DNA of 64,000 bases from Sulfuritalea sp. (GTDB taxonomy: Bacteria; Pseudomonadota; Gammaproteobacteria; Burkholderiales; Rhodocyclaceae): the NCBI GenBank assembly GCA_030651305.1, contig JAUSCI010000046.1, positions 1 to 64,000 on the forward strand, read 5' to 3'. This document shows, piece after piece, positions 1 to 62,234 of the stretch (the stretch's first letter is position 1; the number at the start of each line of letters is the position of its first letter). Under the pieces are notes generated by a model, which did not search any database, had not been told where the DNA came from, and saw nothing but the letters and a program-made list of their open reading frames with translations. The translations under genes and the position numbers were made by a program.

Positions 1-2318
1 CTGATGGAAACGCTGTAGAAATTGCGCACGCGGTTGTGCACGAAATACTCGGCAATGTCGCCCATGACTTTCAGGCTGAACTCGGTCGAGAAGATGCAGG
101 TGTTCTGGCCCTGGTCTTCCTTGAGGATGTCGGCCTGCACCGTGCCGCGCACGGAAGACAGCGTCCATTCGCGAATCTTTTCGGCTTCGTCCTCGGTCGC
201 CTCGCGACCGTTCTGGGTTCGGAACTTCTCGACCTGCTGGTCGACGGCGGCATTGAGGAACATGGCGAGGATCATCGGCGCCGGGCCGTTGATGGTCATC
301 GATACCGAGGTCGCCGGGTCGCACAGGTCGAAGCCCGAGTAGAGCACCTTGAGGTCGTCCAAGGTGGCAATCGAAACACCGGAATTGCCGACCTTGCCGT
401 AGATGTCCGGGCGGCGGTCGGGATCGCAACCGTACAGCGTGACCGAGTCGAAGGCCGTCGACAAACGCTTGGCCGGCATGCCTTCGGAAACCTTGAGGAA
501 GCGCTTGTTGGTGCGGAAGGCATCGCCCTCGCCGGCGAACATGCGCGTCGGATCTTCGTTCTCCCGCTTGAAAGCAAACACGCCGGCGGTGTAGGGGAAG
601 GAACCGGGCACGTTCTCGCGCATGAGGAACTTGAGCAGCTCGCCTTCGTCGTCGAAACGCGGCAGCGCCACCTTGCGTATCCTGGTGCCGGACATGGTCT
701 CGAAAATCAGGTTGGTGCGGATTTCCTTGTCGCGGATCTTCACCACGTACTCGTCGCCGGCATAGGCCTTCTTCATGTCCGGCCACATCGCCAGCAGCTT
801 GCGCGCATGGGGCGTGAGCTGGCCGTCCTTCCAGGCGATCAGCTCGTCGAAGTCCCCGGCCTTCTTGCCACAGCCCTCGAAGATCGCCTTGGCGGTTTTC
901 AGCGACTGCCGTTCGCGCGCCAGTGTGGATTGCTCGGCGACCTGGCGGTGGTAGCCGCGCAGGGCGTCGGCAATGTCGGCCAGGTAGCGCACGCGATCCG
1001 CCGGGACAATGGCGCGGCCGGCGGAGGAGTGCTTGACGCTCACCGCCGGCAGCACGCCCTTCCTGAACTTGAGTCCACGCTCTGCCAGGCGCGGCACCAG
1101 CGCCTGATACAAGGCAGTGACGCCGTCGTCATTGAAGCGCGCCGCCATGGTGCCGAATACCGGCATCTCCTCGGGGCTCTCGCCGAATCTCTCGCGATTG
1201 CGCTGGTACTGCTTGCGCACGTCGCGCAGCGCGTCTTCCGCGCCCTTGCGGTCGAACTTGTTGATCACCACGAAATCGGCGAAATCCAGCATGTCGATCT
1301 TTTCCAGTTGCGAGGCGGCGCCGAACTCGGGCGTCATGACGTAGAGCGAAACATCGACCAGCGGCACGATCGCCGCATCGCCCTGACCGATGCCCGAGGT
1401 TTCCACCACGATGAAGTCGAAGCCGGCCACCTTGCAGGCGGCGATGACGTCGGGCAGCGCCTTGGAGACTTCGCTTCCCGTGTCGCGGGTGGCCAGCGAG
1501 CGCATGTAGATGTTGGGATGCTGGATCGCATTCATGCGGATGCGGTCGCCCAGCAGCGCGCCGCCGGTGCGTTTGCGCGAAGGGTCGATGGAAATCACCG
1601 CGATCTTCTGGCTGTCGTCCTGGTCGAGGCGGAAGCGGCGGATCAGTTCGTCGGTCAGCGAGCTTTTTCCCGCGCCACCCGTGCCGGTGATGCCAAGAGT
1701 CGGCGCTGGTGATACGGCGGCCTTTTCCATCAGCGCCTGTCTAGCCTTGGCAGGCCAGGCGCCGTTCTCCAGCGCGGTGATGATCTGCGCCAGGTTGCGC
1801 AGGCGCTCGCCGCGATCCTCGACCTGCAGTGCCTGGAGGTCATGCGGCGCGCGTTTGCTGAGGTCCACATCGCAACGCACCACCATGTCGTTGATCATGC
1901 CCTGCAGACCCATCGACTGACCGTCCTGCACCGAGTACAGATGCGCCACGCCGTAGGCATGCAGCTCGGTCGCTTCGGCCGGTACGATCACCCCGCCGCC
2001 GCCGCCGAAGACCTTGATGTTCTCGCCGCCGCGCTCCTTGAGCAAGTCGAGCATGTACTTGAAGAACTCGAGGTGGCCGCCTTGATAGGACGACACGGCG
2101 ATGCCCTGCGCGTCTTCCTGCAGGGCCGCGTTGACGATTTCCTCGACCGAGCGGTTGTGGCCGAGATGAATCACCTCGACGCCGGAAGCTTGCAGGATGC
2201 GCCGCATGATGTTGATCGAGGCGTCATGGCCATCGAACAAGGAGGTGGCAGTGACGAAACGCACCTTGTGCTTCGGCTTGTAGGGCACCAGCTTGGCGGC
2301 AATGCTTAGATCGGTCAT
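1..2318 (-). CDS. icmF: Fused isobutyryl-CoA mutase IcmF, 3' end outside the window
   Basis: Coenzyme B12-dependent acyl-CoA mutase with its own G-protein chaperone; it interconverts isobutyryl-CoA and butyryl-CoA or a related branched pair. The visible 772 residues run in the family order. An N-terminal B12 domain carries DGHDAS near residue 28. A MeaB-like GTPase follows, with P-loop GTGGAGKSS near residues 212-220 and NKFD near 351. The start of the mutase barrel carries FPYTAGVF and MFAGEGDAFRTN. Known homologues are about 1,090 residues, so roughly the last 300 are missing beyond the edge. The ATG is preceded by GGGAG, and the gene is divergent from an AraC-type regulator 100 bp away. 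The Phe in GVF favours isobutyryl-CoA over pivalyl-CoA mutase, but the other specificity residue lies outside the window. Confidence 0.9.
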   Translation of the reverse strand, partial: MTDLSIAAKLVPYKPKHKVRFVTATSLFDGHDASINIMRRILQASGVEVIHLGHNRSVEEIVNAALQEDAQGIAVSSYQGGHLEFFKYMLDLLKERGGENIKVFGGGGGVIVPAEATELHAYGVAHLYSVQDGQSMGLQGMINDMVVRCDVDLSKRAPHDLQALQVEDRGERLRNLAQIITALENGAWPAKARQALMEKAAVSPAPTLGITGTGGAGKSSLTDELIRRFRLDQDDSQKIAVISIDPSRKRTGGALLGDRIRMNAIQHPNIYMRSLATRDTGSEVSKALPDVIAACKVAGFDFIVVETSGIGQGDAAIVPLVDVSLYVMTPEFGAASQLEKIDMLDFADFVVINKFDRKGAEDALRDVRKQYQRNRERFGESPEEMPVFGTMAARFNDDGVTALYQALVPRLAERGLKFRKGVLPAVSVKHSSAGRAIVPADRVRYLADIADALRGYHRQVAEQSTLARERQSLKTAKAIFEGCGKKAGDFDELIAWKDGQLTPHARKLLAMWPDMKKAYAGDEYVVKIRDKEIRTNLIFETMSGTRIRKVALPRFDDEGELLKFLMRENVPGSFPYTAGVFAFKRENEDPTRMFAGEGDAFRTNKRFLKVSEGMPAKRLSTAFDSVTLYGCDPDRRPDIYGKVGNSGVSIATLDDLKVLYSGFDLCDPATSVSMTINGPAPMILAMFLNAAVDQQVEKFRTQNGREATEDEAEKIREWTLSSVRGTVQADILKEDQGQNTCIFSTEFSLKVMGDIAEYFVHNRVRNFYSVSI

Positions 2319-2418
2319 GGCAGCGGCTCCCGGAAATGCGACAGTGTTTGCATCATAGGCAATGCGCGGGGACACCGCCATGACACAAAACGACGAGAAC
2401 TATGCATAATCTGCCATT

Positions 2419-3495
2419 ATGGTTACGCGATCTACCTCTTCCCGGAAATCCGCCGGAAGTCCCTCCACAGTCGCCATCGGCTTTGTCAGCGGCATTCTGT
2501 CAGGCGTTGCGCGGGCCGGACTGGCGCCCGAGCGCCTGCTCGAACGTGCAGAAATTGCCACCCATCTACTGCATGACCGCAGCGCCCGCATTCCGGTGGC
2601 GCGCTACGCCACGCTCTATCGCCTGATCAACGAGGGCCTCGACGACGAAGGTTTCGCGCTTTTCTCGCGGCCTCTGCGTCGCGGCAGCTTCGAGTTCCTC
2701 TGCCGCGCCGCGCTCTCGGCGGCAACGCTGGAACAGGCGCTGGAGCGCATCGCGCGCTTTCTCCACGTGGTGCTCGATGACCTCGAAGTGGAAGTCGAAA
2801 AAAGCGGGCGCGCCGCCGTTCTCGTCATCAGCGAGGAACAGGCGCTGCCGGTCAGCCCGGTCGGGCGCGTGTTCGCCTACGAATGGCTGCTGCGCATGAT
2901 CCACGGCCTGGCGGCGTGGCTGGTGGCGCATCCGCTGCCGCTCGACGAAGTTTGCTTCCCTTATCCGCCGCCCTTGCACGCCGCCGACTACGAACTGGTC
3001 TTCGCCCCGCGCTATACCTTCGACGCACCGCGCCTGGAGGCGCGCTTCCCCGCCGAGTGGCTGGCGCTGCCGGTGCGCCGCGACGAAGCCGCGCTGCGAG
3101 CCTTCCTCGTCGACGCGCCGGCCAGCATCACCACGCTCTACCGCCGCGACCGCGCCCTCAGCTTGCGTGTTCGCGAGCATTTGCGCGCCGCCCTGCCGGA
3201 ACACCTGGCGCTGCCGGCGATTGCCCGCCGCCTGTTCCTTTCGCCGCGCACGCTGCACCGCCGGCTGGAAGACGAGGGCACCAGCTTTCGCGCCATCAAG
3301 GACAGCCTGCGCCGCGACCTCGCCACCGACTGGCTGACCAAGACCGCACGCCCCTTGAGCCGCATCGGAGCCGACCTCGGCTTCGCCGACGCCGCCGCCT
3401 TCTATCGCGCCTTCGCCGGCTGGACCGGCAGCGGCCCACGCGAGTACCGCAAGCGCTTCGGACACTCAAGCGCGCCAGCAGCGCATCCGGCCTGA
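2419..3495 (+). CDS. AraC family transcriptional regulator with arabinose_bd-type N-terminal domain
   Basis: A 358-residue regulator of the OruR/ArgR-like AraC group. Residues about 25-220 form the ligand or effector domain of the PF12625 type. Residues about 250-346 form the double helix-turn-helix, visible in IARRLFLSPRTLHRRL and in the second-helix signature IGADLGFADAAAFYRAFAGWTG, which ends in the typical GPREYRKRF. The gene is divergently transcribed from icmF across 100 bp, so control of icmF and its acyl-CoA pathway is a reasonable inference. No operator is evident in the shared gap. The family assignment is firm, but the effector is unknown. Confidence 0.85.
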   Translation: MVTRSTSSRKSAGSPSTVAIGFVSGILSGVARAGLAPERLLERAEIATHLLHDRSARIPVARYATLYRLINEGLDDEGFALFSRPLRRGSFEFLCRAALSAATLEQALERIARFLHVVLDDLEVEVEKSGRAAVLVISEEQALPVSPVGRVFAYEWLLRMIHGLAAWLVAHPLPLDEVCFPYPPPLHAADYELVFAPRYTFDAPRLEARFPAEWLALPVRRDEAALRAFLVDAPASITTLYRRDRALSLRVREHLRAALPEHLALPAIARRLFLSPRTLHRRLEDEGTSFRAIKDSLRRDLATDWLTKTARPLSRIGADLGFADAAAFYRAFAGWTGSGPREYRKRFGHSSAPAAHPA

Positions 3496-4133: not shown

Positions 4134-4314
4134 GATCGGAGTTTCTCTGCATGTTGCCCGCCAGCCTCTCTGGCCTCTGTGCGGCGCCTTGTTTCTCCCG
4201 ACGCAAGACCCGAACGCATGGCGGAACAATAGCAGGAAACCCGAAAGTCGGCGCTCCGGATTGCCAGTGCGCTATGATTTCCGCTGAAATGATGCGCAAC
4301 AGGGAGAACCGGGC

Positions 4315-4699: not shown

Positions 4700-5227
4700 T
4701 CAAGCGTCGCCTCGCGCCGGGTAGTTCTTCAGAATCACGAAATCGAGGCTCTGCAGAATCTCGTTGAAATGCGGACGTCCGAAGGGCATGGTCGAGGTGG
4801 TACCCCAATAGAGGGATCCGTCCGGGCACACGACGAACAGCCCCGGTTCATTGAACAGGTCCGGTTCCATCACACCAGTGGACGTGGGCCCCTTGGAGCG
4901 CGAGATATACAGTCCCCACTTGCGCGCTTCCTCAATCGAGAGGCCGTACCCTATGCGCAGGTTTGGAAGCGCCCAACCCGATTTGGCTTGCTCGGCGCGG
5001 TCTTGTGTATCGGAACTGGCTGCGAACACCGATACGCCGCGCTTTTCAAGTTCAGGAAGCACGCCTTCCAACTCGGATAAATATCGCCGGCAGATGGGGC
5101 AATGAAGGCCCCGGTAGAACACGAGCATGGTGAACTGCTGCGGCTTTTCCGCTGAAAGCGAGAAATGTCCGCCGCCGACGACGTCAATTTCCAGGCCGGG
5201 AACGAGTTTGTTTGGAATCAGCGACAT
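4700..5227 (-). CDS. Peroxiredoxin-like (AhpC/TSA fold) protein
   Basis: 175 residues of the thioredoxin-fold peroxiredoxin-like family. The active-site motif FYRGLHCPIC places Cys43 and Cys46 at the start of the first helix, as expected for a thiol peroxidase or thiol-disulfide reductase. No signal peptide is visible, so it is probably cytoplasmic. The start is the ATG at 5227, preceded by GGAGAA; the ORF is open further upstream but without homologous sequence. It is the last gene of the minus-strand bufferin-type operon, 76 bp after the DUF2652 gene. Co-transcription would fit a thiol or redox role under copper stress, but that is inference. Confidence 0.75.
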   Translation of the reverse strand: MSLIPNKLVPGLEIDVVGGGHFSLSAEKPQQFTMLVFYRGLHCPICRRYLSELEGVLPELEKRGVSVFAASSDTQDRAEQAKSGWALPNLRIGYGLSIEEARKWGLYISRSKGPTSTGVMEPDLFNEPGLFVVCPDGSLYWGTTSTMPFGRPHFNEILQSLDFVILKNYPARGDA

Positions 5228-9380: not shown

Positions 9381-9453
9381 GGTATGGCCGCCGCGCCGTC
9401 AGCGCCGACTTCCGCACACACGTGTCGATCTTGCGACAACCGTCCAGCCGGAA

Positions 9454-9765: not shown

Positions 9766-9768
9766 GCG

Positions 9769-10470: not shown

Positions 10471-13400
10471 TCAACCCTCAAGCCGGTGTCGCAAGCGCCA
10501 TTCCTTGACCAGCGCATAGATTGCCGGAATCACCGCCAGCGTCAGAATTGTCGAGGAGATCATTCCGCCCACCATCGGCGCGGCGATGCGGCTCATGACT
10601 TCCGAACCGGTGCCAGTGCCCCACATGATCGGCAAGAGGCCGGCCATGATCGCCACTACCGTCATCATCTTCGGCCGCACGCGCTCGACCGCACCTTCCA
10701 TCACTGCCGCATAAAGGTCCTCGGCGCCGGGCCGCCGTCCCGCCAGCGCCGACTTCTTCTTCTCCGCTTCCCAGGCATGGTCGAGGTAGATCAGCATCAC
10801 CACGCCGGTCTCCGCCGCGACCCCGGCCAGCGCGATGAAGCCCACCGCCACCGCCACGGACAGGTTGTAGTCGAGCAGCCACATCAGCCAGACGCCGCCG
10901 ACCAGCGCGAAGGGCACTGACAGCATGACGATGAAGGTTTCGGTCAGGCGCCGGAAGTTGAGATAGAGCAGCAGGAAGATGGTCAACAGGGTGACCGGGA
11001 TGACCACCTTCATCTTCTGGATGGCCCGTTCCATGTACTCGAACTGGCCGCTCCAGGCGATGTAATAGCCGGGCGGGAATTTGATCTTTTCCGCCACCGC
11101 CTTCTTCGCGTCGGCGACGTAGCCGCCGATGTCACGGTCGCGAATGTCGACGTAGATGTAGGCCGATAGCAGCGCGTTCTCGGTGCGGATGCCGGGCGCG
11201 CCCTTGGCAATCTCCACCTTCGCCACCTGCCCGAGCGGGATCATCGCGCCATCCATGGTCGGCACCAGCACCTCGCGCGCGATCTGCTGCGGGTCGGAGC
11301 GCAGTTCGCGCGGATAGCGGACCTGCACGCCGAAACGTTCGCGGCCCTCGACGGTGGTAGTCACCATTTCGCCGCCCAGCGCCGTGCCGATCACGTCCTG
11401 CAGGTCGCCGACGGCCAGCCCGTAGCGGGCAAGCTGCTCGCGGTCCGGTTCGATGTTGAGGTAGAAGCCGCCGGTGATGCGTTCGGCGAAGGCCGATGTC
11501 GTTCCCGGCACGGTCTTCACCACGGCCTCGATCTCCTTGGCCAGCTTTTCCATCTCGTTCAAGTCCTTGCCGAAAACCTTGATGCCGATCGGCGTGCGGA
11601 TGCCGGTTGACAGCATGTCGATGCGCGCCTTGATCGGCATGGTCCAGGAGTTGGCGACACCGGGAAATTGCAGCGCCTTGTCCAGCTCGGCGATCAGCTT
11701 GTCAGTGGTCATGCCAGGCCGCCATTCGGCTTCCGGCTTGAGATTGATCACAGTCTCGAACATCTCTGTCGGCGCCGGGTCGGTCGCCGTGTTGGCGCGA
11801 CCGGCCTTGCCGTAGACCGATGCCACCTCAGGAAAGCTCTTGATAATCTTGTTTTGCGTCTGCAACAGCTCGGCCGCCTTGGTGATCGACATGCCGGGCA
11901 AGGACGTCGGCATATAGAACAGCGTGCCTTCGTTGAGCGTCGGCATGAATTCGCTGCCCAGTTTTGAGGCCGGGTAGAAGCTGACCGCTATGGCCGCCAG
12001 TGCGAGGAGGATGGTCGTGCGCTTCCAGCGCATCACCCAGGTGATGATCGGCCGATAGGTCCAGATCAGAAACCGGTTCACCGGGTTCTTCGCCTCGGGC
12101 AGGATCTTGCCGCGGATGAACAGCATCATCAGCACAGGCACCAGCGTCACCGACAGCATGGCCGCGCCGGCCATGGCGAAGGTCTTGGTATAGGCCAGCG
12201 GCGAGAACAGGCGGCCTTCCTGCGCCTCCAGCGTAAATACCGGCAGGAAGGAGACGGTGATGATCAGCAGCGAAAAAAACAGCGCCGGCCCGACCTCGCG
12301 GCAAGCCGCGACGATGGCGGCAGCTCTCGCTGCTGCCATCGTTTGGCCTTGTTGCCCCCCCCTCTCCCCCTGCCCCTCCCCCGCCGGGGGGGAGGGGGGT
12401 ATGGGTGGAGGCGCTTGCTCCAGCCGCTCCAGGTGCTTGTGCGCGTTCTCGATCATGACAATCGCCGCATCGATCATGGCACCGATGGCGATGGCGATGC
12501 CGCCGAGGCTCATCAGGTTCGAGTTCATGCCCAGCAGATGCATGGCGATGAAGGCAATCAGGATGCCGACCGGCAGCATCAGGATCGCCACCAGCGCGCT
12601 GCGCAGGTGGAGCAGGAAGACGAAGCAGACCAGCGCGACGATGATCGATTCCTCGGCCAGGGTTCGCTTCAGGGTGTCGATGGCGCGATGGATCAGTTCG
12701 GACCGGTCGTAAACCGGCTCGATGCTGACGCCCGGCGGCAATCCGGGCGCCACCTCGGCGATCTTCTCCTTGATGTTGTGAATCACTTCCAGGGCATTCT
12801 GGCCATAGCGCGCCATGACAATGCCCGACACCACTTCGCCCTCGCCGTTGAGCTCGGTCAGGCCGCGCCTCTCGTCGGGCGCCAGTTCGACGCGGGCAAC
12901 GTCGCGAATCAGCACCGGCGTGCCCTTGTCGCTCTTGACGACGAGCATTTCGATGTCGCCCTTGCCGCGCAGGTAGCCTTTGCCGCGCACCATGTACTCG
13001 GTCTCGGCCATCTCGATGGCGCGGCCGCCAACGTCGCGATTGGAATCGCGGATCGCCTGCGCCACCTTCATCAGCGGAATGCCGTAGGCGCGCAGCTTGA
13101 CCGGATCGACCGTGACCTGATAGGTCTGGACGAAGCCGCCGATGGAAGCGACTTCGGCGACGCCGTGGGCCTTGGTCAACTGGTAGCGCAGGTACCAGTC
13201 CTGGATGCTGCGCAGTTCCGCCAGGGTCTTGTCTTTCGCCAGCAGCGCGTACTGGTAGACCCAGCCGACGCCCGTGGCGTCGGGACCGATCTGCGGCGTG
13301 ATGCCTTTCGGCATGCGACCCGCAGCGAAGTTGAGGTACTCGAGGACGCGCGAGCGCGCCCAGTAGATGTCCGTGCCGTCTTCGAAAATGATGTAGACGA

Positions 13401-13674
13401 AGGACGCGCCGAAGAAGGAGAAGCCGCGCACCACCCTGGACTTCGGCACCGAGAGCATGGCCGTGGTGAGCGGATAGGTGACCTGGTCCTCGACCACCTG
13501 CGGCGCCTGCCCCGGATATTCGGTATAGACGATGACCTGCACGTCCGAAAGATCGGGTAGTGCGTCGATCGGCGTGCGCAGCACCGCGTAGATGCCGGCG
13601 AGGACGACGAACAGGGTGGCGAGCAGGACCAGGAAGCGGTTTCGTGCCGACCAGTCGATGACGTTGCTGAGCAT
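10471..13674 (-). CDS. cusA: CusA copper/silver RND efflux pump
   Basis: 1,067-residue inner-membrane RND transporter that drives Cu(I)/Ag(I) out through CusBC using the proton gradient. The TM4 signature AIGAMIDAAIVMIENAHK is the Cu/Ag (HME4) type. The methionines expected for the copper path are present in SLPGMS, RIDMLSTGI and GEMV. Residues about 418-443, just after TM4, are a Pro/Gly-rich insertion (PPSPPAGEGQGERG) encoded by a palindromic GC-rich repeat and homopolymer tracts. This loop is absent from typical CusA, and the reading frame stays open. It is the last gene of the cusFCBA operon, 13 bp after cusB. Confidence 0.93.
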   Translation of the reverse strand: MLSNVIDWSARNRFLVLLATLFVVLAGIYAVLRTPIDALPDLSDVQVIVYTEYPGQAPQVVEDQVTYPLTTAMLSVPKSRVVRGFSFFGASFVYIIFEDGTDIYWARSRVLEYLNFAAGRMPKGITPQIGPDATGVGWVYQYALLAKDKTLAELRSIQDWYLRYQLTKAHGVAEVASIGGFVQTYQVTVDPVKLRAYGIPLMKVAQAIRDSNRDVGGRAIEMAETEYMVRGKGYLRGKGDIEMLVVKSDKGTPVLIRDVARVELAPDERRGLTELNGEGEVVSGIVMARYGQNALEVIHNIKEKIAEVAPGLPPGVSIEPVYDRSELIHRAIDTLKRTLAEESIIVALVCFVFLLHLRSALVAILMLPVGILIAFIAMHLLGMNSNLMSLGGIAIAIGAMIDAAIVMIENAHKHLERLEQAPPPIPPSPPAGEGQGERGGQQGQTMAAARAAAIVAACREVGPALFFSLLIITVSFLPVFTLEAQEGRLFSPLAYTKTFAMAGAAMLSVTLVPVLMMLFIRGKILPEAKNPVNRFLIWTYRPIITWVMRWKRTTILLALAAIAVSFYPASKLGSEFMPTLNEGTLFYMPTSLPGMSITKAAELLQTQNKIIKSFPEVASVYGKAGRANTATDPAPTEMFETVINLKPEAEWRPGMTTDKLIAELDKALQFPGVANSWTMPIKARIDMLSTGIRTPIGIKVFGKDLNEMEKLAKEIEAVVKTVPGTTSAFAERITGGFYLNIEPDREQLARYGLAVGDLQDVIGTALGGEMVTTTVEGRERFGVQVRYPRELRSDPQQIAREVLVPTMDGAMIPLGQVAKVEIAKGAPGIRTENALLSAYIYVDIRDRDIGGYVADAKKAVAEKIKFPPGYYIAWSGQFEYMERAIQKMKVVIPVTLLTIFLLLYLNFRRLTETFIVMLSVPFALVGGVWLMWLLDYNLSVAVAVGFIALAGVAAETGVVMLIYLDHAWEAEKKKSALAGRRPGAEDLYAAVMEGAVERVRPKMMTVVAIMAGLLPIMWGTGTGSEVMSRIAAPMVGGMISSTILTLAVIPAIYALVKEWRLRHRLEG
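12355..12399. repeat. GC-rich palindromic repeat with homopolymer tracts inside cusA
   Basis: The arms CCCCTCCCCC (12373-12382) and GGGGGAGGGG (12388-12397) form a perfect 10-bp inverted repeat around a 5-bp loop. It is preceded by a C8 run (12355-12362). The segment resembles the C/G-tract palindromic elements scattered in many proteobacterial genomes and is translated as part of CusA. Confidence 0.7.
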
Positions 13675-13687: not shown

Positions 13688-15298
13688 TCAGTGGCCTTGG
13701 TGGGCCGAGGAACGCGCAGCGCCGGTGCCTTCCAGCTTGACGATCACCCACTCGCCGGGCTTGCGCTCGACGAAGCTGAACTCGATCGTCGCGCCGGGCT
13801 TGAGGCTGCCGAGCAGCGAGGAATTGGCCAGCGTGAAATCCATGGTCATGCCGGGCCACTTCAGGCTCGCCACCGGACCGTGCGTGATCGAAACCGTGCC
13901 GGACTTGGCGTCGATCGCGTCGAGTTTGCCGGTCGCCTGGTGGCTGGTTCCCTGCGCGGCAGGCGCCGCCTGCGCCGGTTCAGGTCCGGCCTTGGGCGCC
14001 GCGGGGCCGAAACCGCTGACCGCCGCCTTCAGATTGCTCTCAGCGTCGATGAGGAAGTTGGCGGTCACCACCACGAGTTCACCGTCCTTGACGCCCTCGA
14101 TGACTTCGGCATAGCTGTCGCTGCGGGCGCCGAGCTTGACCTCGCGCGGTTCGAAGCGACCTGCCCCGGCCTGGATCAGGACAATGCGGCGGGTGCCGCT
14201 GTCGATCACGGCCGAGACGGGCACCGTGACCACGGGCCCTTTCGCCGCGACGGCGAGTTCCATCTGGGCGAACATGCCGGGCTTGAGCAACTGCCCGGGA
14301 TTGGCAAGTTCGACGCGGACCGGAATGGTCCGGGTTTCGGCTTTCAGTGTCGGATAGACATAGGTGATGGCTCCCTGGAATACCTTGTCCGGGTAGGCAT
14401 TGATTTTCACCGTGGCGCCAGCGCCGACTTTCACCAGTCCGATGTCCTGCTCGAAAACGTCGGCGACAACCCACACGGCCGACAGATCGGCGATCTGGTA
14501 GAGAGCCTCGCCCGGCATGAAACGCATGCCTTGCACGGCCTTCTTCTCGGTGACGATGCCGGACACCGGCGAGCGGAACGTCAGCGTGCGCTTCGTCTCG
14601 CCGGACTTTGCCAACGCCTTGACTTGCTCTTCGGAGATGTCCCAGTTCTTGAGCCGCATCAGGCTCGACTCGGCGAGCTGGCGCATGCCGGCCTGGGCTT
14701 CGCCTCCCGCCTCCTTGAGCGACTGCACGCCCTGGGCGGCGATCGCATATTCGCGCTGGGCGGAGACCAGTTCCGGGCTGTAGACCTCGAACAGCGCCTG
14801 CCCCTTGCTCACCGGCTGGCCGGTGACATTGACGTGCAGGCGTTCGACATAGCCCTCGAACTTGGGCGAGATGGTGTAGATGCGTCGCTCGTCCGGCTCG
14901 ATGCGGCCAGCAGCGCGGACGATACGGTCCAGCGCGCGCAGGTTGGCCGCTTCGGTCCTGACGCCGAGTTTCTGCACCTTCTCGGTGCTGATCCTGACCT
15001 GGTTCGCGGCCCCCGGCTCCTCGTCCGGCGCGCCCTCGTAAACCGCGATGTAATCCATGCCCATCGGGTCTTTCTTCGGCGTCGGCGAAGTATCGGGTAG
15101 CCCCATCGGGTTGCGATAGTAGAGTAGCTTGCGCTCCTTGCTTGCTGCGGCGGCAGGAGCGGCCGTTGCCGTGGTGCTCGCCGTGTCACCAGCGCCAGCG
15201 CGCTGCGTCCCTTCGGGAACTCTTGCCTTGCCCAACCAGTAGCCGGCGCCGGCGGCCAGCAGCACAGTCGCTACCACCGCCATGTATCGATGCTTCAT
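13688..15298 (-). CDS. cusB: CusB periplasmic adaptor with C-terminal CusF domain
   Basis: 536 residues. The N-terminal anchor (MAVVATVLLAAGAGYWLG) is followed by a heavy-metal-binding domain (YYRNPMGLPDTSPTPKKDPMGMDY, residues about 55-80), the barrel-sandwich and hairpin adaptor region, and a C-terminal CusF-like domain (about residues 445-525). The last contains SITHGPVASLKWPGMTMDF with the full H/W/M/M copper set. It links CusA to the outer-membrane channel and can hand over Cu(I). The start is the ATG at 15298, which overlaps the stop of the upstream TolC-type gene by 4 bp. The fused CusF domain is seen in a subset of CusB proteins. Confidence 0.92.
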   Translation of the reverse strand: MKHRYMAVVATVLLAAGAGYWLGKARVPEGTQRAGAGDTASTTATAAPAAAASKERKLLYYRNPMGLPDTSPTPKKDPMGMDYIAVYEGAPDEEPGAANQVRISTEKVQKLGVRTEAANLRALDRIVRAAGRIEPDERRIYTISPKFEGYVERLHVNVTGQPVSKGQALFEVYSPELVSAQREYAIAAQGVQSLKEAGGEAQAGMRQLAESSLMRLKNWDISEEQVKALAKSGETKRTLTFRSPVSGIVTEKKAVQGMRFMPGEALYQIADLSAVWVVADVFEQDIGLVKVGAGATVKINAYPDKVFQGAITYVYPTLKAETRTIPVRVELANPGQLLKPGMFAQMELAVAAKGPVVTVPVSAVIDSGTRRIVLIQAGAGRFEPREVKLGARSDSYAEVIEGVKDGELVVVTANFLIDAESNLKAAVSGFGPAAPKAGPEPAQAAPAAQGTSHQATGKLDAIDAKSGTVSITHGPVASLKWPGMTMDFTLANSSLLGSLKPGATIEFSFVERKPGEWVIVKLEGTGAARSSAHQGH

Positions 15299-16572
15299 AG
15301 ATCTTCCCCGATCAGTCGTTCGATGTCCGCCAGGCGGATCTGTTGTTCGACTTGCGCCTTGATGACGTCCTGTTTGGCCTTGCGAATCTGCCGTTGCGCG
15401 TCGAGCAGTGTGGCGAAATCCACCTTGCCGGTTTCGTAACCGGCCAGCGCCGCCCGGAAGGTGAGTTCGGCCTGCGGCAACAGGCTGGTTTGCGCCAGTA
15501 TTCCCACGCGCCGCGCGGCATCGATGCCGGCGAGGTTCTCTGACAGATCGGCCAGCAACTGGTTGGCGGTGGCTTCCTTGCGGGCGCGGGTCGCGTCGAT
15601 CATCTTCTCGGCTTCGCGTTCCTGGCTGCGCCGACTTTCCTGTTGCAGCGGAATGTTGAATTCGAACATCAGCTCCCATTCATTCACGCGATTGCGCATC
15701 TGGATCGGCGAGACGCCGATGGTGAAGTCCGGGTAGCGGTTGCGATAGGTCAGGTCGCGGTTTTTCTCCGCCGAACGAATCCTGGCGTCGTCGGCAAAGA
15801 GCTGCGGATTCTTCCCGCGCAAACGATCTTCCAGCGTCGCGTAATCCAGCTTCGTGGCGGCCGGCGTTGGCCGCAAGCGCTCCGGTTCGGCCAGCGGCGC
15901 CTGCGCCGGACGCGCCAGCACGGCGTTGAGACGGGAGCGCGCGTGGTGATGCTCGGTCTCCATCTGGATCAGTTCGCCTCTCATCGCGGTGCGCTCCACC
16001 TGAACGCGGATAGCATCCTGTTGCGGCACCAGTCCGCCGGCATAGCGCGCATGGGTAATGCCCTCTATGCGGTCGATCAGCTCAATGACTTCCCGGGTCA
16101 GCCGGATGAGCTTGGCAAAAGCGAAATACTGGGCGTAGGAGATCTTGATACGAGCCGCCTGTTCCGTCCAGGTGACGCCGGCCTTGCCCTTCGCCACATC
16201 GACCTCGGCTTCCGCCGCTTCGCGCTTGAGATCGCGCTTACCCCAAAACGGCAGGGGCTGGATCAGCGTGTATTTGGTGCTGCCGACGCGACTTGGCAGC
16301 AAGTTGAAGCTGGTGCCGGACTCGGCGCCGAAGTTGCTCACATTCTGCAACTCAGTGCGCAGCATCGGGTCGGGCAGCGCGCCGGCCGGATGGACGCGCT
16401 CCCCGGCCGCTTCGGCTTCCAGACGCATCGCGGCGTATTCCGGATTTCGTGCCTTGGCGTAGTCGAGCAGGCCTTCGACGCTGGCGCCGATCAGCGGCTG
16501 CGCCGGCTCGGCATGCGCAGCCGCAACAACGGCAGCCAGAGCCGCCGCCAGCAGCACAATGCGGGAGGCCAC
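15295..16572 (-). CDS. cusC: CusC-like outer membrane efflux channel (TolC family)
   Basis: 425 residues with a signal peptide (LLAAALAAVVAAAHAEP) and the two long-helix outer membrane efflux repeats of the TolC fold. These are visible as heptad-like Ala/Arg/Glu-rich stretches near residues 60-200 and 270-420, ending in QVEQQIRLADIERLIGEDL. It forms the exit duct for the Cus complex. No lipobox cysteine is present, unlike E. coli CusC. It is coupled to cusB by ATGA and lies 4 bp after cusF. Confidence 0.88.
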   Translation of the reverse strand: MASRIVLLAAALAAVVAAAHAEPAQPLIGASVEGLLDYAKARNPEYAAMRLEAEAAGERVHPAGALPDPMLRTELQNVSNFGAESGTSFNLLPSRVGSTKYTLIQPLPFWGKRDLKREAAEAEVDVAKGKAGVTWTEQAARIKISYAQYFAFAKLIRLTREVIELIDRIEGITHARYAGGLVPQQDAIRVQVERTAMRGELIQMETEHHHARSRLNAVLARPAQAPLAEPERLRPTPAATKLDYATLEDRLRGKNPQLFADDARIRSAEKNRDLTYRNRYPDFTIGVSPIQMRNRVNEWELMFEFNIPLQQESRRSQEREAEKMIDATRARKEATANQLLADLSENLAGIDAARRVGILAQTSLLPQAELTFRAALAGYETGKVDFATLLDAQRQIRKAKQDVIKAQVEQQIRLADIERLIGEDL

Positions 16573-26560: not shown

Positions 26561-27697
26561 TCAGCGCACTTGGGACAGCAATCCGGCGCCTTCGACGACG
26601 ACGCGGTCACCATCGTACAGGCCGTCGGCGATGGCCACGTTGCCGGCGTCCAGCGACTGGACGCTCACCTTGCGCGCGACAAAGCGCTCGGCCTCGGCGT
26701 GGATCCACACCGCCGTCTCGCCAGCGCCGACTTTGGTCAGCGCGGCGCGCGGCACCGCTGCGCCCTTGATGTTTTGCGCCGTCCGCACAATGACCTTGAC
26801 CGGCTGGCCTACAGCGACCACCGCGTTGGGTCCGGCAATGCGGAACAACAATGGCAGGGCCTGCTCGCGCAACTGGCGGCCACCGCCGACAAACTTGAGT
26901 TCCAGCGCGGTTTGCTCGGCCAGCGCGCTGGCGGAAATCAGCTTCGCTGCGATGCCGGGATCGTAGGCCAGTGCCTCGACGGCAAGACGGTCCGGATCGA
27001 CGATTTCGAACAGCACCTCGCGGGCGTCGACGATCTGCCCGGCGACCAGATGGTGCGAGGCGCTGATCACGCCCGTCGCCGTTGCCAGTAGCGGCTCGGC
27101 GGTATTGATGCTGGCACCGACGAAGGCGCGGCGCTTCTGCAGCGCGTCGCGCTCGATGCGTGCTGATTCGATTTCCTTCCGCGGCACAGCGCCTTCAAGC
27201 TGCTCCAGGCGCTTCACGCGCCCGTCGGCGATGGCCTGCTGGGCTTCCAGTTCGGCCAACTGCGCCTTCTGGTTGCCGCGTTCGATGGCGCCGCTGACAG
27301 GCCGCAAGTAGGCCAGCACCTCGCCTTTGATGACCTTGCGTCCCTGCACCGGCATGCCTTTGGGTCCGGGCATGACGGTGCCGGAGAACACCGCCTGGAC
27401 GCGCCCGCTAGTGTTGGGGTCGGGAATGACCTTGCCGTTGAGTTCGACCGTTGCAGCGAGATCGCCGAGTCGTGCCGGCTGCGTGCGCAGACCCAACTGA
27501 CGCTGCACGGATTTGGGGACGAACAGGCTGCCGTCGGCCTGGCGCTGCAACGCAGCCGGCGCGCCGCTGGTTGGCGTGGCGGCGAAAGGTTTCCTGGCGT
27601 CCTCGCTGTGATCTTCGCCGCCATGTGCCAGCGCGCCGGAGGTCGTGAATGCCAAGGATGTTGCAGCAACGAAGAGCCGCAGGTCAAATGCTTTCAT
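26561..27697 (-). CDS. CzcB-family RND periplasmic adaptor
   Basis: 378 residues with a signal peptide (LRLFVAATSLAFTTSGALAHGGEDHSED, followed by a His/Asp-rich mature start). The biotinyl-lipoyl and beta-barrel adaptor domains of the HlyD type are visible as TVELNGKVIPDPN, GTVMPGP, VISASHHLVAGQIVDAREVLFEIVDPD and the C-terminal VQSLDAGNVAIADGLYDGDRVVVEGAGLL. It joins the RND pump at 23404-26559 to the TolC-type channel. The start overlaps the stop of the 180-residue gene by 4 bp. Unlike cusB here, it has no heavy-metal-binding or CusF domain. Confidence 0.85.
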   Translation of the reverse strand: MKAFDLRLFVAATSLAFTTSGALAHGGEDHSEDARKPFAATPTSGAPAALQRQADGSLFVPKSVQRQLGLRTQPARLGDLAATVELNGKVIPDPNTSGRVQAVFSGTVMPGPKGMPVQGRKVIKGEVLAYLRPVSGAIERGNQKAQLAELEAQQAIADGRVKRLEQLEGAVPRKEIESARIERDALQKRRAFVGASINTAEPLLATATGVISASHHLVAGQIVDAREVLFEIVDPDRLAVEALAYDPGIAAKLISASALAEQTALELKFVGGGRQLREQALPLLFRIAGPNAVVAVGQPVKVIVRTAQNIKGAAVPRAALTKVGAGETAVWIHAEAERFVARKVSVQSLDAGNVAIADGLYDGDRVVVEGAGLLSQVR

Positions 27698-37583: not shown

Positions 37584-38009
37584 GACGGTCCGGTGGGCTT
37601 ACGGGGGTCGGGGCCGTTACCTGCCCGCGTAAACGGAATCCCCGTCACGCAAAAGCGAAGGGGCGCCGTTCCGGACTCTGTCTGCCGGGGATTCCGCTTC
37701 GCGGGCCGGCAAGCGCCGACTCTTCAACAAGCCACGATTTACTCAGGGCTACGCCTGATTCCTCATGACGCGCGGAGTCGCGGCCTGACCGATTCGGAGG
37801 TCGGAAACCACTCCTTTGCGACGCAATGCGTTGCCGCAAGAATCTTCCCTATGCGCGCTAACGCACAGAGAAACCTTGTTTCGAAGCAAATGATTACGAA
37901 AATCAGTATGGCGTTCTGGTGCTACGGCCTTAGGCTTTCGTGACTCGTTGCGAAATGTCGCCGCAGATTTTTCCGCTGGGCTCTTTGAACTGTTTCGAGG
38001 CGTACACCT
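37584..38009. other. Gene-free stretch containing repeat copy A
   Basis: 426 bp without a supported gene. It contains the first copy of the dispersed repeat (37671-37726) and an inverted pair CGGAATCCCC / GGGGATTCC at about 37634 and 37687. The last 100 bp are AT-richer and may hold the promoter of the FecR-type gene, but I see no convincing -35/-10 pair. Confidence 0.5.
37671..37726. repeat. Intergenic repeat, copy A
   Basis: Two blocks are shared exactly with copy B. The 25-bp block 37671-37695 (starting CCGGACTCTGTCTGCC) and the 27-bp block 37700-37726 (containing GGCCGGCAAGCGCCGACT) are separated here by only 4 bp. It lies about 280 bp ahead of the FecR-type gene. Confidence 0.85.
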
Positions 38010-40634: not shown

Positions 40635-40968
40635 TCCGGTGCCGGGAAATCCCTTCCCTGAATTCTGAACTCGCCGTACCGGACTCTGTCTGCCGGGGAT
40701 TCCACTTTATGTCCCGGAGGGACGGTATCCCCTGGTGGGACGCGGGCCGGCAAGCGCCGACTCTTCAGCGCCCTCGGCAATGACACGGGGCGGCCAACGC
40801 ATTTCACCTGCTGCCTGAGCGCGGCCTTGCTCAGGAGAATCGAGGAGGACTTCGCCTGCAGGGTCAGCCTTGCCCCAATAGCGCCGCTCATCCAGCTCGT
40901 ATGGTTGGCGGCATGGAACGATACGAGGTATTCTGATAGGCAAGCAGTGATTGCGAAAGGAGAATCAG
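40635..40968. other. Gene-free stretch containing repeat copy B
   Basis: 334 bp without a supported gene between the FecR-type gene and the next small gene. It contains repeat copy B (40679-40767). The final 15 bp hold the strong AAAGGAG ribosome binding site of the next gene. Confidence 0.5.
40679..40767. repeat. Intergenic repeat, copy B (longer)
   Basis: The same two blocks as copy A (40679-40703 and 40741-40767) are identical but are separated by 37 bp. That spacer carries two small hairpins, GTCCCGGAGGGAC and TCCCCTGGTGGGA. Same orientation as copy A and directly after the FecR-type gene. Confidence 0.85.
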
Positions 40969-41714: not shown

Positions 41715-43544
41715 TCACTCCACGGTGACACTCTTGGCGAGGTTCCTCGGCTTGTCTACGTCCGTGCCCTTCACCAGCGCGGCGTGATAGGACAGCAGTT
41801 GCAGCGGCACGACATGCAGCACCGGCGACAGCAGGCCATAGTGCTCGGGCAGGCGCAGCACGTGCACCCCATCGTCGTGATCCACGGCGGAGTCGGCATC
41901 GGCGAAGACATAGAGCTCGCCGCCGCGGGCAGCGACTTCCTTGAGGTTGGACTTGAGCTTTTCCAGCAAGGCGTCGTTGGGCGCGATGCTGATGACCGGC
42001 ATGGTCCTGTCTACCAGCGCCAGCGGTCCGTGCTTGAGTTCACCGGCAGGATAGCCCTCGGCATGGATATAGGAAATTTCCTTGAGCTTCAGTGCGCCTT
42101 CCAGCGCGATCGGGTAATGGTGGCCGCGACCGAGGAATAGCGCGTGCTGCTTGTCGGCGAAGCGCTTTGCCCAGATCTTGATTTCAGGTTCCAGCGCCAG
42201 CACTTTCTGCACCGCCACCGGCAGGTGGCGCAGGGCGGTCAGGTGCGCGGCTTCCTGCTCGGGCGTCAGGCGTCCGGCCTGCTTGGCCAGCGTCACCGCG
42301 AGCAGGAACAGGGCAGCCAGCTGGGTAGTGAACGCCTTGGTCGAAGCGACGCCGATCTCGGGTCCGGCGCGGGTCAGGAAGCGTAGCGCGCATTCGCGCA
42401 CGATGGCCGATTCGGGCACGTTGCAGATCGCCAGCGTACGGCCCATGCCCAGCGCTTTGGCATGTTTGACGGAGGCCAGCGTGTCGGCGGTTTCGCCGGA
42501 CTGCGAAATCGCCACGACGAGTTGCTGCGGATCGGGCACCGAGACGCGATAGCGATACTCGCTGGCGATTTCGACGCTGCAACTTATTCCCGCCACTTGC
42601 TCGATCCAGTAGCGCGCCACCAGGCCGGCGTGATAGCTGGTGCCGCAGGCGAGAATCAGCACCGAATGCACGTCGTGCAGCATTTCCGGCGCCGCCACGC
42701 CGAACAGGTTGGGGGTAAGGGTTTGCGCGCCGCCGATCATTTCCAGCGTGGCGGCCAGCGCCTGCGGCTGTTCGAAAATTTCCTTCTGCATGTAGTGCTG
42801 CCAGTCACCCAGCTCGACGTCGTTCGCCGAGAGCGTGCTGTCATGCACCGGGCGATCCGCCGGCACATTCAGCGCCGTACCGCCAGCGCCGACTATTCGC
42901 ATCGCATTGCGTTTGAGTTCGGCGACATCACCGTCCTCAAGATAGATCATGCGCCGCGTGACCTGCAACAGGGCAGAAGCGTCGGACGCGGCATAGTTGC
43001 CATCCTCGCCGAGTCCCAGCAGCAGCGGCGCACCATGGCGGGCGACGACGATGCAGTCATCTTCCTCGCGCACCACGGCGATAGCATAGGCACCGATCAG
43101 GCGCGCCGTCGTCCGGCGCACGGCATCGAACAGACCGGGCGTCGACTTCAGCGTGTGCTGGATAAGGTGGGCGATGACTTCGGTATCGGTGTCCGAAACG
43201 AAGATATAGCCTTCGGCGATCAGTTCCCGCCTGATCTCGGCGTAGTTTTCGACAATGCCGTTATGAACCACGGCAAGGCCGCCGGAGACATGCGGATGGG
43301 CGTTGCGTTCGTTCGGCACGCCATGCGTAGCCCAGCGGGTATGGGCAATACCGTGATGGGCGACCAGACCTTCGGCCTGCGCCGCCAGCTCGGCAACGCG
43401 ACCGACGCTGCGCAGCCGCGTCAGGCCTGGATTGAGCAGCGCCAGCCCGGCCGAATCGTAGCCGCGATACTCCAGCCTTGTCAGGCCTTCGATGAGCACG
43501 GGAACAATGTTGCGGGAAGCGACCGCCGCGACAATGCCGCACAT
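41715..43544 (-). CDS. glmS: Glutamine-fructose-6-phosphate aminotransferase GlmS
   Basis: 609 residues, the full family length. It makes glucosamine-6-phosphate from fructose-6-phosphate and glutamine. Catalytic Cys2 (MCGIVAAV), HTRWATHG and HNGIVENY mark the glutaminase. Two SIS domains follow ([35 protein letters not shown]), and the end [13 protein letters not shown] is intact. It starts 3 bp after glmU and is probably co-transcribed with it and gltBD. No glmS ribozyme is expected or seen in this group. Confidence 0.97.
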
Positions 43545-51157: not shown

Positions 51158-52282
51158 TCATAATTCGCCGACGGAGAACAGGCGGCGATGCTCCTTCATC
51201 GAGTAGCGGTCTGTCATCCCGGCGATATAGTCCGCCGTCGCCCGCGCGACACTGTCGGTGGCAGCCATTTCCTGATACTGGGGCGGCAACAGGCGCGGAT
51301 CGGCGACGAAGGCGTTGAACAAATCGTGAATGATCCGGTGCGCCTTGGCCGTCATGCGCAACACCTGATAGTGCTGGTACAGATGATCGCGCAGGAAGCC
51401 CTTGAGCGCCCGGTTTTCGGCCTGCATGGTGTCGGTGAAGGCAATCAGCGCGGACGCCGTGTGCACCTCCGCCAGCGTACGCGGTGCGGCAGCCTCTATT
51501 CTGCGCGCCGATTCGGCCAGCAAATCGGTTACCAGGGCGTCGATCATGCGGCGGATGGTTTCGTGCACGCGGCGGCGATCCGACAGTTGCGGAAATTCGG
51601 CATCCGCTGCGGCAGCATGGTGGGCAAAGAGGCTTACTTCCCCGAGTTGATCAAGGGAGAGCAGTCCGGAACGCAGTCCGTCATCCACGTCGTGGTTGTT
51701 GTAGGCAATTTCATCGGCCAGATTGCAGATTTGCGCCTCCAGTGACGGTCGGCGACCCTCGATAAAGCGCTGGCCAAGGTCTCCGAGCGTGCGGGCGCGC
51801 GCCGGCGAACAATGTTTTAGGATGCCCTCGCGAGTCTCGAACATCAGGTTGAGGCCGTCAAACGCCCCGTAGCGCTCCTCCAGTCGATCGACGATGCGCA
51901 GACTCTGCAGATTGTGCTCGAAGCCGCCATGCGCCTGCATGCACTCGTTGAGGGCGTCCTGCCCGGCGTGGCCGAAAGGCGTGTGACCGAGGTCGTGGGC
52001 GAGCGCAATGGCCTCCGCCAAGTCGTCATTGAGATGCAGGGCGCGCGCGATCGAGCGCGCGATCTGGGCTACCTCGATGCTGTGCGTGAGCCGGGTGCGA
52101 AACAGGTCACCTTCGTGGTTGACGAAAACCTGCGTCTTGTATTCAAGGCGACGAAAAGCGGTGGAATGCACGATGCGATCACGATCGCGCTGAAACTCGC
52201 TGCGCGCCTTGGGGCGCGGCTCAGCAAAGGCGCGCCCGCGGCTGGCGCTGTCGCTGACTGCATAGGGCGCCAAATCACTCAC
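51158..52282 (-). CDS. dgt: Deoxyguanosinetriphosphate triphosphohydrolase-like protein
   Basis: HD-superfamily dNTPase of about 374 residues. It has the metal motif H ([10 protein letters not shown]), HD ([15 protein letters not shown]) and a later D ([13 protein letters not shown]). It hydrolyses dGTP or other dNTPs to the nucleoside and triphosphate. The frame is open to an ATG at 52333, which would overlap aroB by 59 bp. The GTG at 52282 overlaps only 8 bp and gives the usual N-terminus (LAPYAVSD), so I prefer it. It lies last in the pil-aro-dgt run, before the gltB terminator. Confidence 0.88.
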
Positions 52283-53369
52283 GACAGCAAGACTCGATGG
52301 CGGCGGCGATTTCCTCGCGCGGTGCATCGGCATAGGTCACGGCCTCGCCGAGTCCCTTGAGCAGGACCAGGCGCAAGCTTCCGGCGACCACTTTCTTGTC
52401 GTGGGACATCAGTTCTAGATAGCGATCGACGCCGAGCTCGGGCCCCTTGACCGGCAAACCGGCGCGCCGCAACAGCGCGCGGACACGTCCGACATCGGTC
52501 GCGGACAACCAGCCCAGACGGTGCGAGAGTTCGACGGCCATCATGGTGCCGGCGGCAACAGCTTCGCCATGCAGCCATTCGCCATAACCCATGCCGGTTT
52601 CTATGGCATGGCCGAACGTGTGGCCGAGATTGAGCAGCGCACGGCCGCCTTCCCTTGCGGTCTCGTATTCGTCGGCCGCCACTACCTCGGCTTTGTTGGC
52701 GCAAGAGCGTTCAATGGCTTCCGCCAGCAGTTCGCCGTCACGCGCCAGAAGCCCGTTCATGTTGGTTTCCAGCCAGCCGAGAAACGGCAGGTCACGAATC
52801 AAACCATACTTGATGACCTCCGCCATCCCTGCCGACAACTCCCGATCCGGCAGTGTCTTCAGCGTATCGGTATCGGCCAGCACCAGCTTCGGCTGCCAGA
52901 AGGCACCGACCATGTTCTTGCCGCGTGGACGATTGATGCCGGTCTTGCCGCCCACCGAAGAATCGACCTGCGACAGCAGCGTAGTGGGAATCTGGATAAA
53001 TGGCACGCCGCGCTGATAGGTGGCCGCGGCAAAGCCCGCGAGATCGCCGATGACGCCACCGCCCAGGGCAACGACAGTCGTACTCCGGTCGCAACGGCTC
53101 GCCAGCAGGGCGTCGTAAATCAGGTTGAGCGACTCCCAGTTCTTGTGCGCTTCGCCGTCGGGAAGGATGATCGGCGTAACGCCAGCGCCGACTTTCTCCA
53201 GCGCCGTGGCCAGTACGTCAAGATACAAGGGAGCAACGGTGGTGTTGGTGACCAGAGCGACCCGCGGCGTGCGCAGAAATGGCAGGATCAGGTCGGCGCG
53301 GGCAAGCAGGCTGCCGCCGATCAGAATCGGGTAGCTGCGCTCGGCAAGTTCAAGGTTCAGGCGGCGCAT
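52275..53369 (-). CDS. aroB: 3-dehydroquinate synthase AroB
   Basis: 364 residues, full length; the second step of the shikimate pathway. NAD-binding and metal motifs are visible: [39 protein letters not shown], and metal-site [12 protein letters not shown]. The start overlaps the end of aroK by 13 bp, the normal aroKB arrangement in betaproteobacteria. A copy of the AGCGCCGACT 10-mer lies at 53184. Confidence 0.96.
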
Positions 53370-59133: not shown

Positions 59134-59178
59134 AGGTTTTTTCCTTTAAAAATATTGCCTTACGATCTATACAGATAA

Positions 59179-61986: not shown

Positions 61987-62027
61987 CGCGTGTTACCATC
62001 CTTTATCCGAATAGACTCTCATCCGCC

Positions 62028-62234
62028 ATGCGTCTGATTTCATCGTTTCTCGCCGCGCTGCTTACCCTGAATATCCTCGCCGCGTGCGGCACCAAGACCC
62101 CGCTTTCACTGCCGCCCCCGGCGCCGGCCGCGGTTACATGCCCGCAAAGCGGAAGCCCATGTACGCAAAGCGCGCCAGCGCCGACTCCTGCCGTCGATAA
62201 TAGCAACAAAGCGGCGGCAGAGCGGCGCCAATGA
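62028..62234 (+). CDS. lptM: LptM-like small lipoprotein
   Basis: 68 residues. Signal peptide ending in the lipobox ILAAC (Cys20), followed directly by GTKTPLSLP, which matches the GxKgPLyLP signature of LptM (YifL), a lipoprotein that helps mature the LptD-LptE translocon. The tail is Pro/Ala-rich with two further cysteines. It is divergent from cyaY, as expected, but the usual downstream lysA-dapF pair is replaced here by an RND operon. The 10-mer AGCGCCGACT lies inside at 62177. Confidence 0.85.
   Translation: MRLISSFLAALLTLNILAACGTKTPLSLPPPAPAAVTCPQSGSPCTQSAPAPTPAVDNSNKAAAERRQ

What the first reader, a model, noticed from the sequence alone, without database searches (positions are those of the whole stretch)
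1698..62186. A 10-mer, AGCGCCGACT, recurs 12 times in unrelated contexts
Exact copies start at 1698, 4246, 9401, 10745, 14420, 26723, 37712, 40753, 42885, 44628, 53184 and 62177 (plus strand nine, minus strand three). Six share the longer CGCCAGCGCCGACT. By hand, at about 63% GC, well under one copy is expected in 64 kb of both strands. Copies fall in icmF, cusA, cusB, the czcB-like gene, glmS, glmU, aroB, lptM and in intergenic DNA, in at least three reading frames (VGAG, KSALAG, APT). Protein conservation therefore does not explain them. This looks like a DNA-level signal: an uptake sequence, a Chi-like or architecture site, or a dispersed repeat core.
Basis: partly seen in the sequence, partly recalled or inferred. 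Interest (0 to 1): 0.75.

Follow-up and report, generated by a model that had tools for sequence, protein, structure and literature searches.

The report
Likely genome-wide DNA tag with dialects
A 25-letter DNA tag is scattered hundreds of times through the genomes of some genera of one bacterial family, in different "dialects" in different genera, and it looks like the tags by which two other bacterial families recognise their own DNA during uptake; nobody has yet tested it here.

Summary
AGCGCCGACT occurs 12 times in the window (expected 0.32) and 469 times in the genome (reversed control 35). It is the core of a 25-bp two-part element, CGCCGT-NN-CGCCAGCGCCGACT-NTY, about once per 5.5-6 kb. 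Ten of the 12 window copies are full elements. It lies on both strands, in and between genes, in six frames, without strand bias. In 178 ortholog comparisons it never behaves as a 25-bp insertion.

Ten of 68 sampled genera of the family show a clear excess; 386 genomes of 50 other families show none. Sister genera carry other versions (AGCGTCGACT, CGGCTGACTTTC, GACTGACTTT) between shared arms. The eight carrier genera that could be placed fall in one rpoB clade with some losses.

Best explanation: a DNA uptake sequence of the Neisseria/Haemophilus kind in a third family. Uptake is inferred, not shown. Competence genes comEC and dprA are present, but equally in genera without the element; no receptor was identified.

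The parts
1695..1719 (-). 25-bp element, 1 mismatch (core at 1698)
   Evidence: aligned gap-free in G069 and G117, with gaps in G001
9389..9413 (+). 25-bp element, 3 mismatches (core at 9401)
   Evidence: no aligned relative
10733..10757 (+). 25-bp element, 1 mismatch, inside the CusA/CzcA-family ORF 10471-13674(-)
   Evidence: not seen at this place in the three relatives that align (small gaps, alignment uncertain)
14408..14432 (+). 25-bp element, 1 mismatch, inside the CusB-like adaptor ORF 13688-15679(-)
   Evidence: the three aligned relatives lack it without a 25-bp length change (gap-free in G001)
26711..26735 (+). 25-bp element, 1 mismatch, inside the RND-adaptor-like ORF 26561-27697(-)
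   Evidence: present in the three relatives that align
37700..37724 (+). element with a variant left arm, 4 mismatches
   Evidence: shares GCGGGCCGGCAAGCGCCGACTCTTCA with the copy at 40741
40741..40765 (+). element with a variant left arm, 4 mismatches
42873..42897 (+). 25-bp element without mismatch, inside glmS (41715-43544, -)
   Evidence: the place aligns in all five same-genus genomes and in L009
44625..44649 (-). 25-bp element, 2 mismatches, inside glmU (43548-44909, -)
53172..53196 (+). 25-bp element, 1 mismatch, inside aroB (52275-53369, -)
   Evidence: substituted away in G181 (7 mismatches)
4246..4255 (-). core 10-mer only, arms not conserved (chance or decayed copy)
   Evidence: context
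62177..62186 (+). core 10-mer with CGCC before it but no left arm
   Evidence: context

Best explanation
The element is a self-DNA uptake signal, a DUS/USS-like watermark. I infer that a surface DNA receptor of the competence system, most likely a minor type IV pilin, binds the two-part motif GCCGT-NY-C...-YGACTTT better than other DNA. Fragments that carry it would be taken up and recombined more often, so alleles that happen to match spread by repeated transformation. That would keep about one near-perfect copy per 5-6 kb wherever the sequence tolerates it. When the receptor changes, the middle of the motif changes with it across the genome, giving genus dialects. When the preference or the competence is lost, the motif decays. 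Shown: copy number, element structure, frame- and strand-independence, dialects, clade distribution, substitution-type turnover, presence of comEC, dprA and minor pilins. Inferred: the receptor, preferential uptake, the drive.
For: (1) Abundance: 469 exact cores; 78 elements with at most 4 mismatches in 445 kb against a mean of 0.27 (max 3) for 200 rearrangements of the consensus letters; bimodal mismatch counts. (2) Six reading frames in this genome (five of six in G069), in and between genes, far above the codon null. (3) No strand preference against GC skew: 27:34 and 36:30. (4) Turnover by substitution: of 178 ordered ortholog comparisons, 136 keep the element, 14 lack it with no gap, and in all 28 gapped ones the partner is equal or longer (0 to +33 bases); none is short by about 25 bp. 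(5) Dialects found de novo: G045 AGTCGACGCT 11 vs 0.15 expected; g10 GACTGACTTT 24 vs 0.06 and g66 GAAAGTCAG 16 vs 0.67. In g8 the middle is mixed: 24 of the 54 places listed read AGCACC, 18 AGCGCC, 12 other (counted by eye). (6) Similar density in seven sampled sets: one per 6.0, 5.5, 6.4, 4.4, 5.8, 5.4 and 6.4 kb (3 or 4 mismatches allowed by set). (7) All 12 rows labelled as carriers (8 genera; G247 among them has lost the element) lie in one rpoB clade of 15 (98/95) with three genera that lack it; no excess in 386 genomes of 50 other families. (8) Two inverted pairs in G069 are near-perfect palindromes; the one folded gives -61 kcal/mol, z -11.4. Uptake sequences in terminators are reported for the two known families (PMC13020248, passages). 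(9) comEC above cut-off in all 23 genomes of carrier genera searched; dprA in 26 of 27 (G001 missed).
Against: No uptake has been measured. comEC (72 of 73 genomes above cut-off) and dprA (78 of 80) are as common in genera without the element, so no gene yet tracks it. GspH-type minor pilins were found in 32 of 36 genomes; three of the four misses are carriers (G045, G046, G010). The motif is longer (about 23-25 nt against 9-12) and sparser than DUS. Close pairs are near the chance number (own 1 vs 1.46 expected, and that pair is direct; G069 3 vs 1.87; g66 1 vs 0.48; four sets 0). Density is not the same everywhere: G023 has only 67-86 copies in 2.7 Mb and no dominant word in 140 kb, and G046 has 309 in 3.0 Mb. 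Scarcity in low-GC DNA may partly reflect the motif's own GC content.
Confidence: 0.74

Rival explanations
1. Chromosome-organising site: a nucleoid or segregation protein binds the 25-bp element about every 5-6 kb, and the protein and its site co-evolve into genus dialects.
For: Similar density across sampled sets and a long two-part site suit a dedicated DNA-binding protein; it lies in and between genes.
Against: No strand bias. Three genera inside the clade lack it and single genomes have nearly or wholly lost it (G242 76 copies, G247 1), which is odd for an architecture site. I recall no such protein with 600-800 sites of 25 bp; I did not search for one.
Confidence: 0.11
2. Recombination hotspot of the Chi type, read by RecBCD or AddAB.
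For: Density is close to that of E. coli Chi, and the reverse strand holds GCTGGCG, close to Chi GCTGGTGG (both recalled).
Against: No strand bias (27:34 and 36:30), whereas Chi is biased (recalled). Over 20 conserved positions instead of about 8. Dialects change the Chi-like core. 58 of 68 sampled genera show no clear excess. Recombinase genes were not searched.
Confidence: 0.06
3. Small non-autonomous mobile or dispersed repeat.
For: Copies are near-identical over about 25 bp.
Against: None of 178 ordered ortholog comparisons shows a partner short by about 25 bp. Copies lie inside genes in six frames. No common sequence beyond the element.
Confidence: 0.02
4. Compositional or codon-usage artefact.
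For: GC-rich genome (about 61-63%); some frames are preferred (opposite strand, phase 2: 27 of 56 genic sites).
Against: 48 vs 2.0 after synonymous shuffles; 619 vs 2 for the reversed 23-mer in the same genome.
Confidence: 0.01

Closest known systems
DNA uptake sequence (DUS) of Neisseriaceae, read by the minor pilin ComP
   Same: Hundreds to thousands of copies, lineage dialects around conserved positions, no obvious frame preference noted for one species, some family members without an obvious one (PMC3630211, one section and passages); found in terminators (PMC13020248, passages).
   Different: About 23-25 nt and two-part rather than 10-12 nt; about one per 5-6 kb, whereas N. meningitidis has about 1900 in about 2.2 Mb (size recalled); the CTG core of DUS is not its invariant part; receptor and uptake unknown. 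Many copies begin GCCGTCT like GCCGTCTGAA, which may be chance.
Uptake signal sequence (USS) of Pasteurellaceae
   Same: Genome-wide motif with two dialect types (PMC12616744, passages).
   Different: Cores AAGTGCGGT and ACAAGCGGT are unrelated to this one; USS is denser (recalled).
Chi sites (GCTGGTGG and kin)
   Same: Non-palindromic, similar density (recalled).
   Different: Longer, no strand bias, dialects, patchy within one family.
REP/RPE-type short repeats
   Same: Short, dispersed.
   Different: Those insert and are palindromic or mostly intergenic (recalled); here gain and loss is by substitution.

Membership tests
DNA uptake sequence / uptake signal sequence (as a kind) | Over-represented genome-wide, both strands, coding and intergenic | tested here: met
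DNA uptake sequence / uptake signal sequence (as a kind) | Lineage dialects of one architecture | tested here: met
DNA uptake sequence / uptake signal sequence (as a kind) | Arises by substitution, not insertion | tested here: met
   0 of 178 ordered comparisons with about 25 bp missing
DNA uptake sequence / uptake signal sequence (as a kind) | Inverted pairs used in terminators | tested here: inconclusive
   few pairs, near chance number; two near-perfect palindromes in G069, one folded
DNA uptake sequence / uptake signal sequence (as a kind) | Host has competence machinery | tested here: met
   comEC and dprA found, but also in genera without the element, so not discriminating; other competence genes not searched
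DNA uptake sequence / uptake signal sequence (as a kind) | Competent cells take up motif-bearing DNA preferentially | not testable with these tools
   needs an uptake assay
DNA uptake sequence / uptake signal sequence (as a kind) | Specific receptor (ComP or equivalent) | tested here: inconclusive
   minor pilins in carriers and non-carriers; no candidate tracks the motif
Neisseriaceae DUS (homologous) | Invariant CTG core, 10-12-mer of the GCCGTCTGAA type | tested here: not met
   element consensus; DUS core
Chi site | Strand bias with replication | tested here: not met
Chi site | Read by the host RecBCD/AddAB | not tested
   recombinase genes were not searched; an exonuclease assay would be needed
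Mobile short repeat | Presence/absence gaps of element length in relatives | tested here: not met

The most novel reading that the evidence does not exclude
A third bacterial family evolved a self-DNA uptake watermark on its own: a 23-25-bp two-part motif, spread by transformation drive, with four clear dialects and a mixed fifth in ten genera, and several losses. That gives a natural series for watching a receptor and a genome-wide motif change together.
Probability: 0.7. Interest if true: 0.9.

Novelty: new variant of a known kind. Interest (0 to 1): 0.85.

Why it matters
[quoted passage not shown] A third, independent case with dialects and losses would make the origin of uptake specificity testable by comparison, would predict natural competence in these genera, and would give a tag for spotting foreign DNA and contamination in their assemblies.

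Tried and rejected
Chi, strand-biased sites, codon bias and mobile repeat were tested and set aside. comEC and dprA as genes that might track the motif: present almost everywhere, so uninformative. GspH-type minor pilins: no group tracks the motif (one search picked pilin-like ORFs by a simple text pattern from loci of 30 genomes). The first two rpoB trees used wrongly chosen reading frames and are discarded; one search is the one used. rpoB was not found in G008, G038, G003 and G013, and was split in G025, so these are not in the tree; the carrier genera g8 and g38 are therefore unplaced. Samples of 11-60 kb from eight other genera (g14, g18, g22, g24, g41, g52, g53, g56) gave no dialect; for the remaining non-carrier genera only pattern searches were made, so a dialect with other arms is not excluded. 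G242 and G247 gave no clear dialect in about 47 and 56 kb (one G242 contig of 2686 bases was all N). The genome-contig scan with GlmS gave one close named relative, L009, a Rhodocyclales MAG; most other rows were distant.

Literature: searches returned no paper. Searches (23 papers with the 10-mer, 20 listed; 16; 2; 3; 3) returned papers whose listings show no Rhodocyclales uptake sequence. I saw one section and passages of PMC3630211, and passages of PMC12616744, PMC13020248 and PMC10257627 (the last, only names Rhodocyclaceae as enriched under an antibiotic). Most subscription papers and bioRxiv are not held.
Full report
CHECK OF THE OBSERVATION. AGCGCCGACT is present 12 times at the stated places, nine + and three - (expected 0.32 from 100 dinucleotide shuffles). 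Six copies extend to CGCCAGCGCCGACT. In the whole genome (3.896 Mb, 82 contigs) it occurs 469 times against 35 for the reversed pattern.

ANATOMY. In 445 kb of this genome (window plus 20 stretches), 65 copies with full flanks show conservation over 25 bp: CGCCGT-NN-CGCCAGCGCCGACT-NTY, with two loose positions after the first block and a pyrimidine-rich tail. Mismatch counts to this consensus are bimodal: 16, 34, 13, 9 and 6 at 0 to 4 mismatches, then background; the reversed control has none at 4 or fewer and 6 at 5. At 4 or fewer mismatches the real count is 78; 200 rearrangements of the letters give a mean of 0.27 and a maximum of 3. Position tables for 78 own and 91 G069 elements agree. 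Ten of the 12 window copies are such elements.

NOT A PROTEIN OR CODON EFFECT. With a simple gene caller of my own (283 genes, coding fraction 0.75, so some genes are missed), 56 of 78 elements lie inside genes, in all six frames with some preferred; in G069, 57 of 91 do, in five of six frames. Synonymous-codon shuffles leave a mean of 2.0 (max 7) of 48 genic cores, and 1.94 (max 7) of 45 in G069. There is no preference for the G-rich strand, 27:34 and 36:30, counted only in pieces with clear skew. Density is lowest in the lowest-GC fifth of 5-kb pieces (own 1.06 per 10 kb vs 3.11 in the top fifth; G069 0.63 vs 2.0-2.63 in the others), as expected if foreign DNA lacks it, though the motif's own GC content contributes.

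TURNOVER. Five genomes of the same genus and L009 (a Rhodocyclales MAG, GlmS 93% identical) were aligned to the window and to each other. Elements with at most 3 mismatches and 60 bp aligned on both sides gave 178 ordered, non-independent comparisons: 136 keep the element (at most 4 mismatches, gap-free), 14 lack it without any gap, and 28 have gaps in which the partner is always of equal or greater length (0 to +33); none is short by about 25 bp. In the 150 gap-free ones mean identity is 0.868 in the element and 0.826 in the flanks. The element therefore comes and goes by substitution.

DISTRIBUTION. With the 23-mer at up to 3 mismatches in 395 genomes of the family (68 genera): own genus 22 of 23 genomes with 377-766 copies (exception G242, 76); g19 18 of 19 with 409-783 (exception G247, 1); g46 4 of 4 (309-560); g64 9 of 9 (291-485); g8 825 and g38 774 (one genome each); G045 163; G023 67; the other 336 genomes have 36 or fewer. 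In the order, 386 genomes of 50 other families show no excess with a generic pattern (at most 14; control up to 14); a very different dialect would be missed.

DIALECTS. Intermediate genera proved to carry variants. De novo word counts gave AGTCGACGCT in G045 (11 vs 0.15 expected), read by eye as GCCGTATCCCCAGCGTCGACTTTTG; GACTGACTTT in g10 (24 vs 0.06 in 280 kb of three genomes; G208 favours GGCTGACTTT); and GAAAGTCAG in g66 (16 vs 0.67 in 119 kb), read by eye as GGCGTNCCGCCACGGCTGACTTTCG. The g8 genome is mixed: of 54 listed places 24 read AGCACC, 18 AGCGCC and 12 other (counted by eye). A generic pattern confirms g66 (405-523 in 4 of 4 genomes), g45 (251), g10 (66, 103, 73) and g23 (86). 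An arms-only exact pattern over 73 genomes of 68 genera shows clear excess only in g1, g8, g10, g19, g23, g38, g45, g46, g64 and g66 (52-571 in the main genomes; G242 15, G247 3, G084 2); G016 (11) and G056 (9) have a few, on few contigs; the rest have 0-7. So ten genera share the arms GCCGT-NY-C and YGACTTT with a changeable middle. Sampled densities are one per 6.0 (own), 5.5 (G069), 6.4 (four same-genus genomes), 4.4 (G038), 5.8 (g45), 5.4 (g66) and 6.4 kb (g10). G023, with 67-86 copies in 2.7 Mb, is an exception.

PHYLOGENY. In an rpoB tree of 25 genomes, all 12 rows labelled as carriers, from 8 of the 10 carrier genera (G242 and G247, which have nearly or wholly lost the element, among them), lie in one clade of 15 (98/95) together with G017, G027 and G022, which lack it; the fewest changes are 3. 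One gain with later losses is the simplest reading.

MACHINERY. comEC is above cut-off in 72 of 73 genomes and dprA in 78 of 80, with or without the element. GspH-type minor pilins were found in 32 of 36 genomes (misses G045, G046, G010 and G017), often beside other pilin-like ORFs, in both groups. No receptor can be named.

HAIRPINS. Pairs closer than 120 bp are few. In G069 three inverted pairs occur (1.87 pairs of any kind expected), two of them nearly perfect palindromes; one folds at -61 kcal/mol (z -11.4). Uptake sequences in terminators are reported for Neisseriaceae and Pasteurellaceae (PMC13020248, passages).

INTERPRETATION. Dialects, similar density, substitution turnover, both strands, all frames and one clade with losses together match DNA uptake sequences (PMC3630211, one section and passages) better than any rival. 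The motif is longer and sparser than DUS or USS, and uptake itself is unproven. A 2025 paper calls Neisseriaceae and Pasteurellaceae the only families known to do this (PMC12616744, passages). My searches for a Rhodocyclales case found none (listings only, except the four papers named).

None of these changes the odds.

Noticed in passing
L145 around 4781-4796 (G069, inside the glmU element; same place as L139:13866); also L148:14659, L230:4474: A hairpin-like sequence CCCCAAGGGGACTTCCTTCGGGG sits inside the element in the G069 ortholog of glmU; its core recurs at two other places among the fetched loci and may be a REP-like insert.
   Followed up: partly
window 37700-37724 and 40741-40765; L179:17744-17762: Two elements, and one in G242, share a longer left context (GCGGGCCGGCAAGCGCCGACT) unlike the normal left arm; possibly a terminator-like or older repeat class.
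   Followed up: no
G056 contigs C66, C104, C557; G016 contigs C118, C162, C220, C362: In two genera without general excess, copies cluster on a few contigs (in G016 partly of the g45 dialect), suggesting contamination or recent transfer.
   Followed up: no
G018:C1:1807609, 4957513, 5002088: Three perfect main-dialect copies in a single-contig genome of a non-carrier genus, possibly imported DNA.
   Followed up: no
G208 loci L204-L206, L227-L230: Other strong repeats: GGGGAGAGGG runs and GTCATTCCCG-type words, unrelated to the element.
   Followed up: no
L176-L179 (G242): The top words in this genome that has nearly lost the element are CAGAGGCGCA-type (7 vs 0.17 expected), perhaps a local repeat.
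   Followed up: no
L215 (G083): A CRISPR-like repeat family around GTGGTTTCCCCC appears among the top words.
   Followed up: no
G242 and G247: Two genomes inside carrier genera have nearly or wholly lost the element (76 and 1 copies) although comEC and dprA remain.
   Followed up: partly
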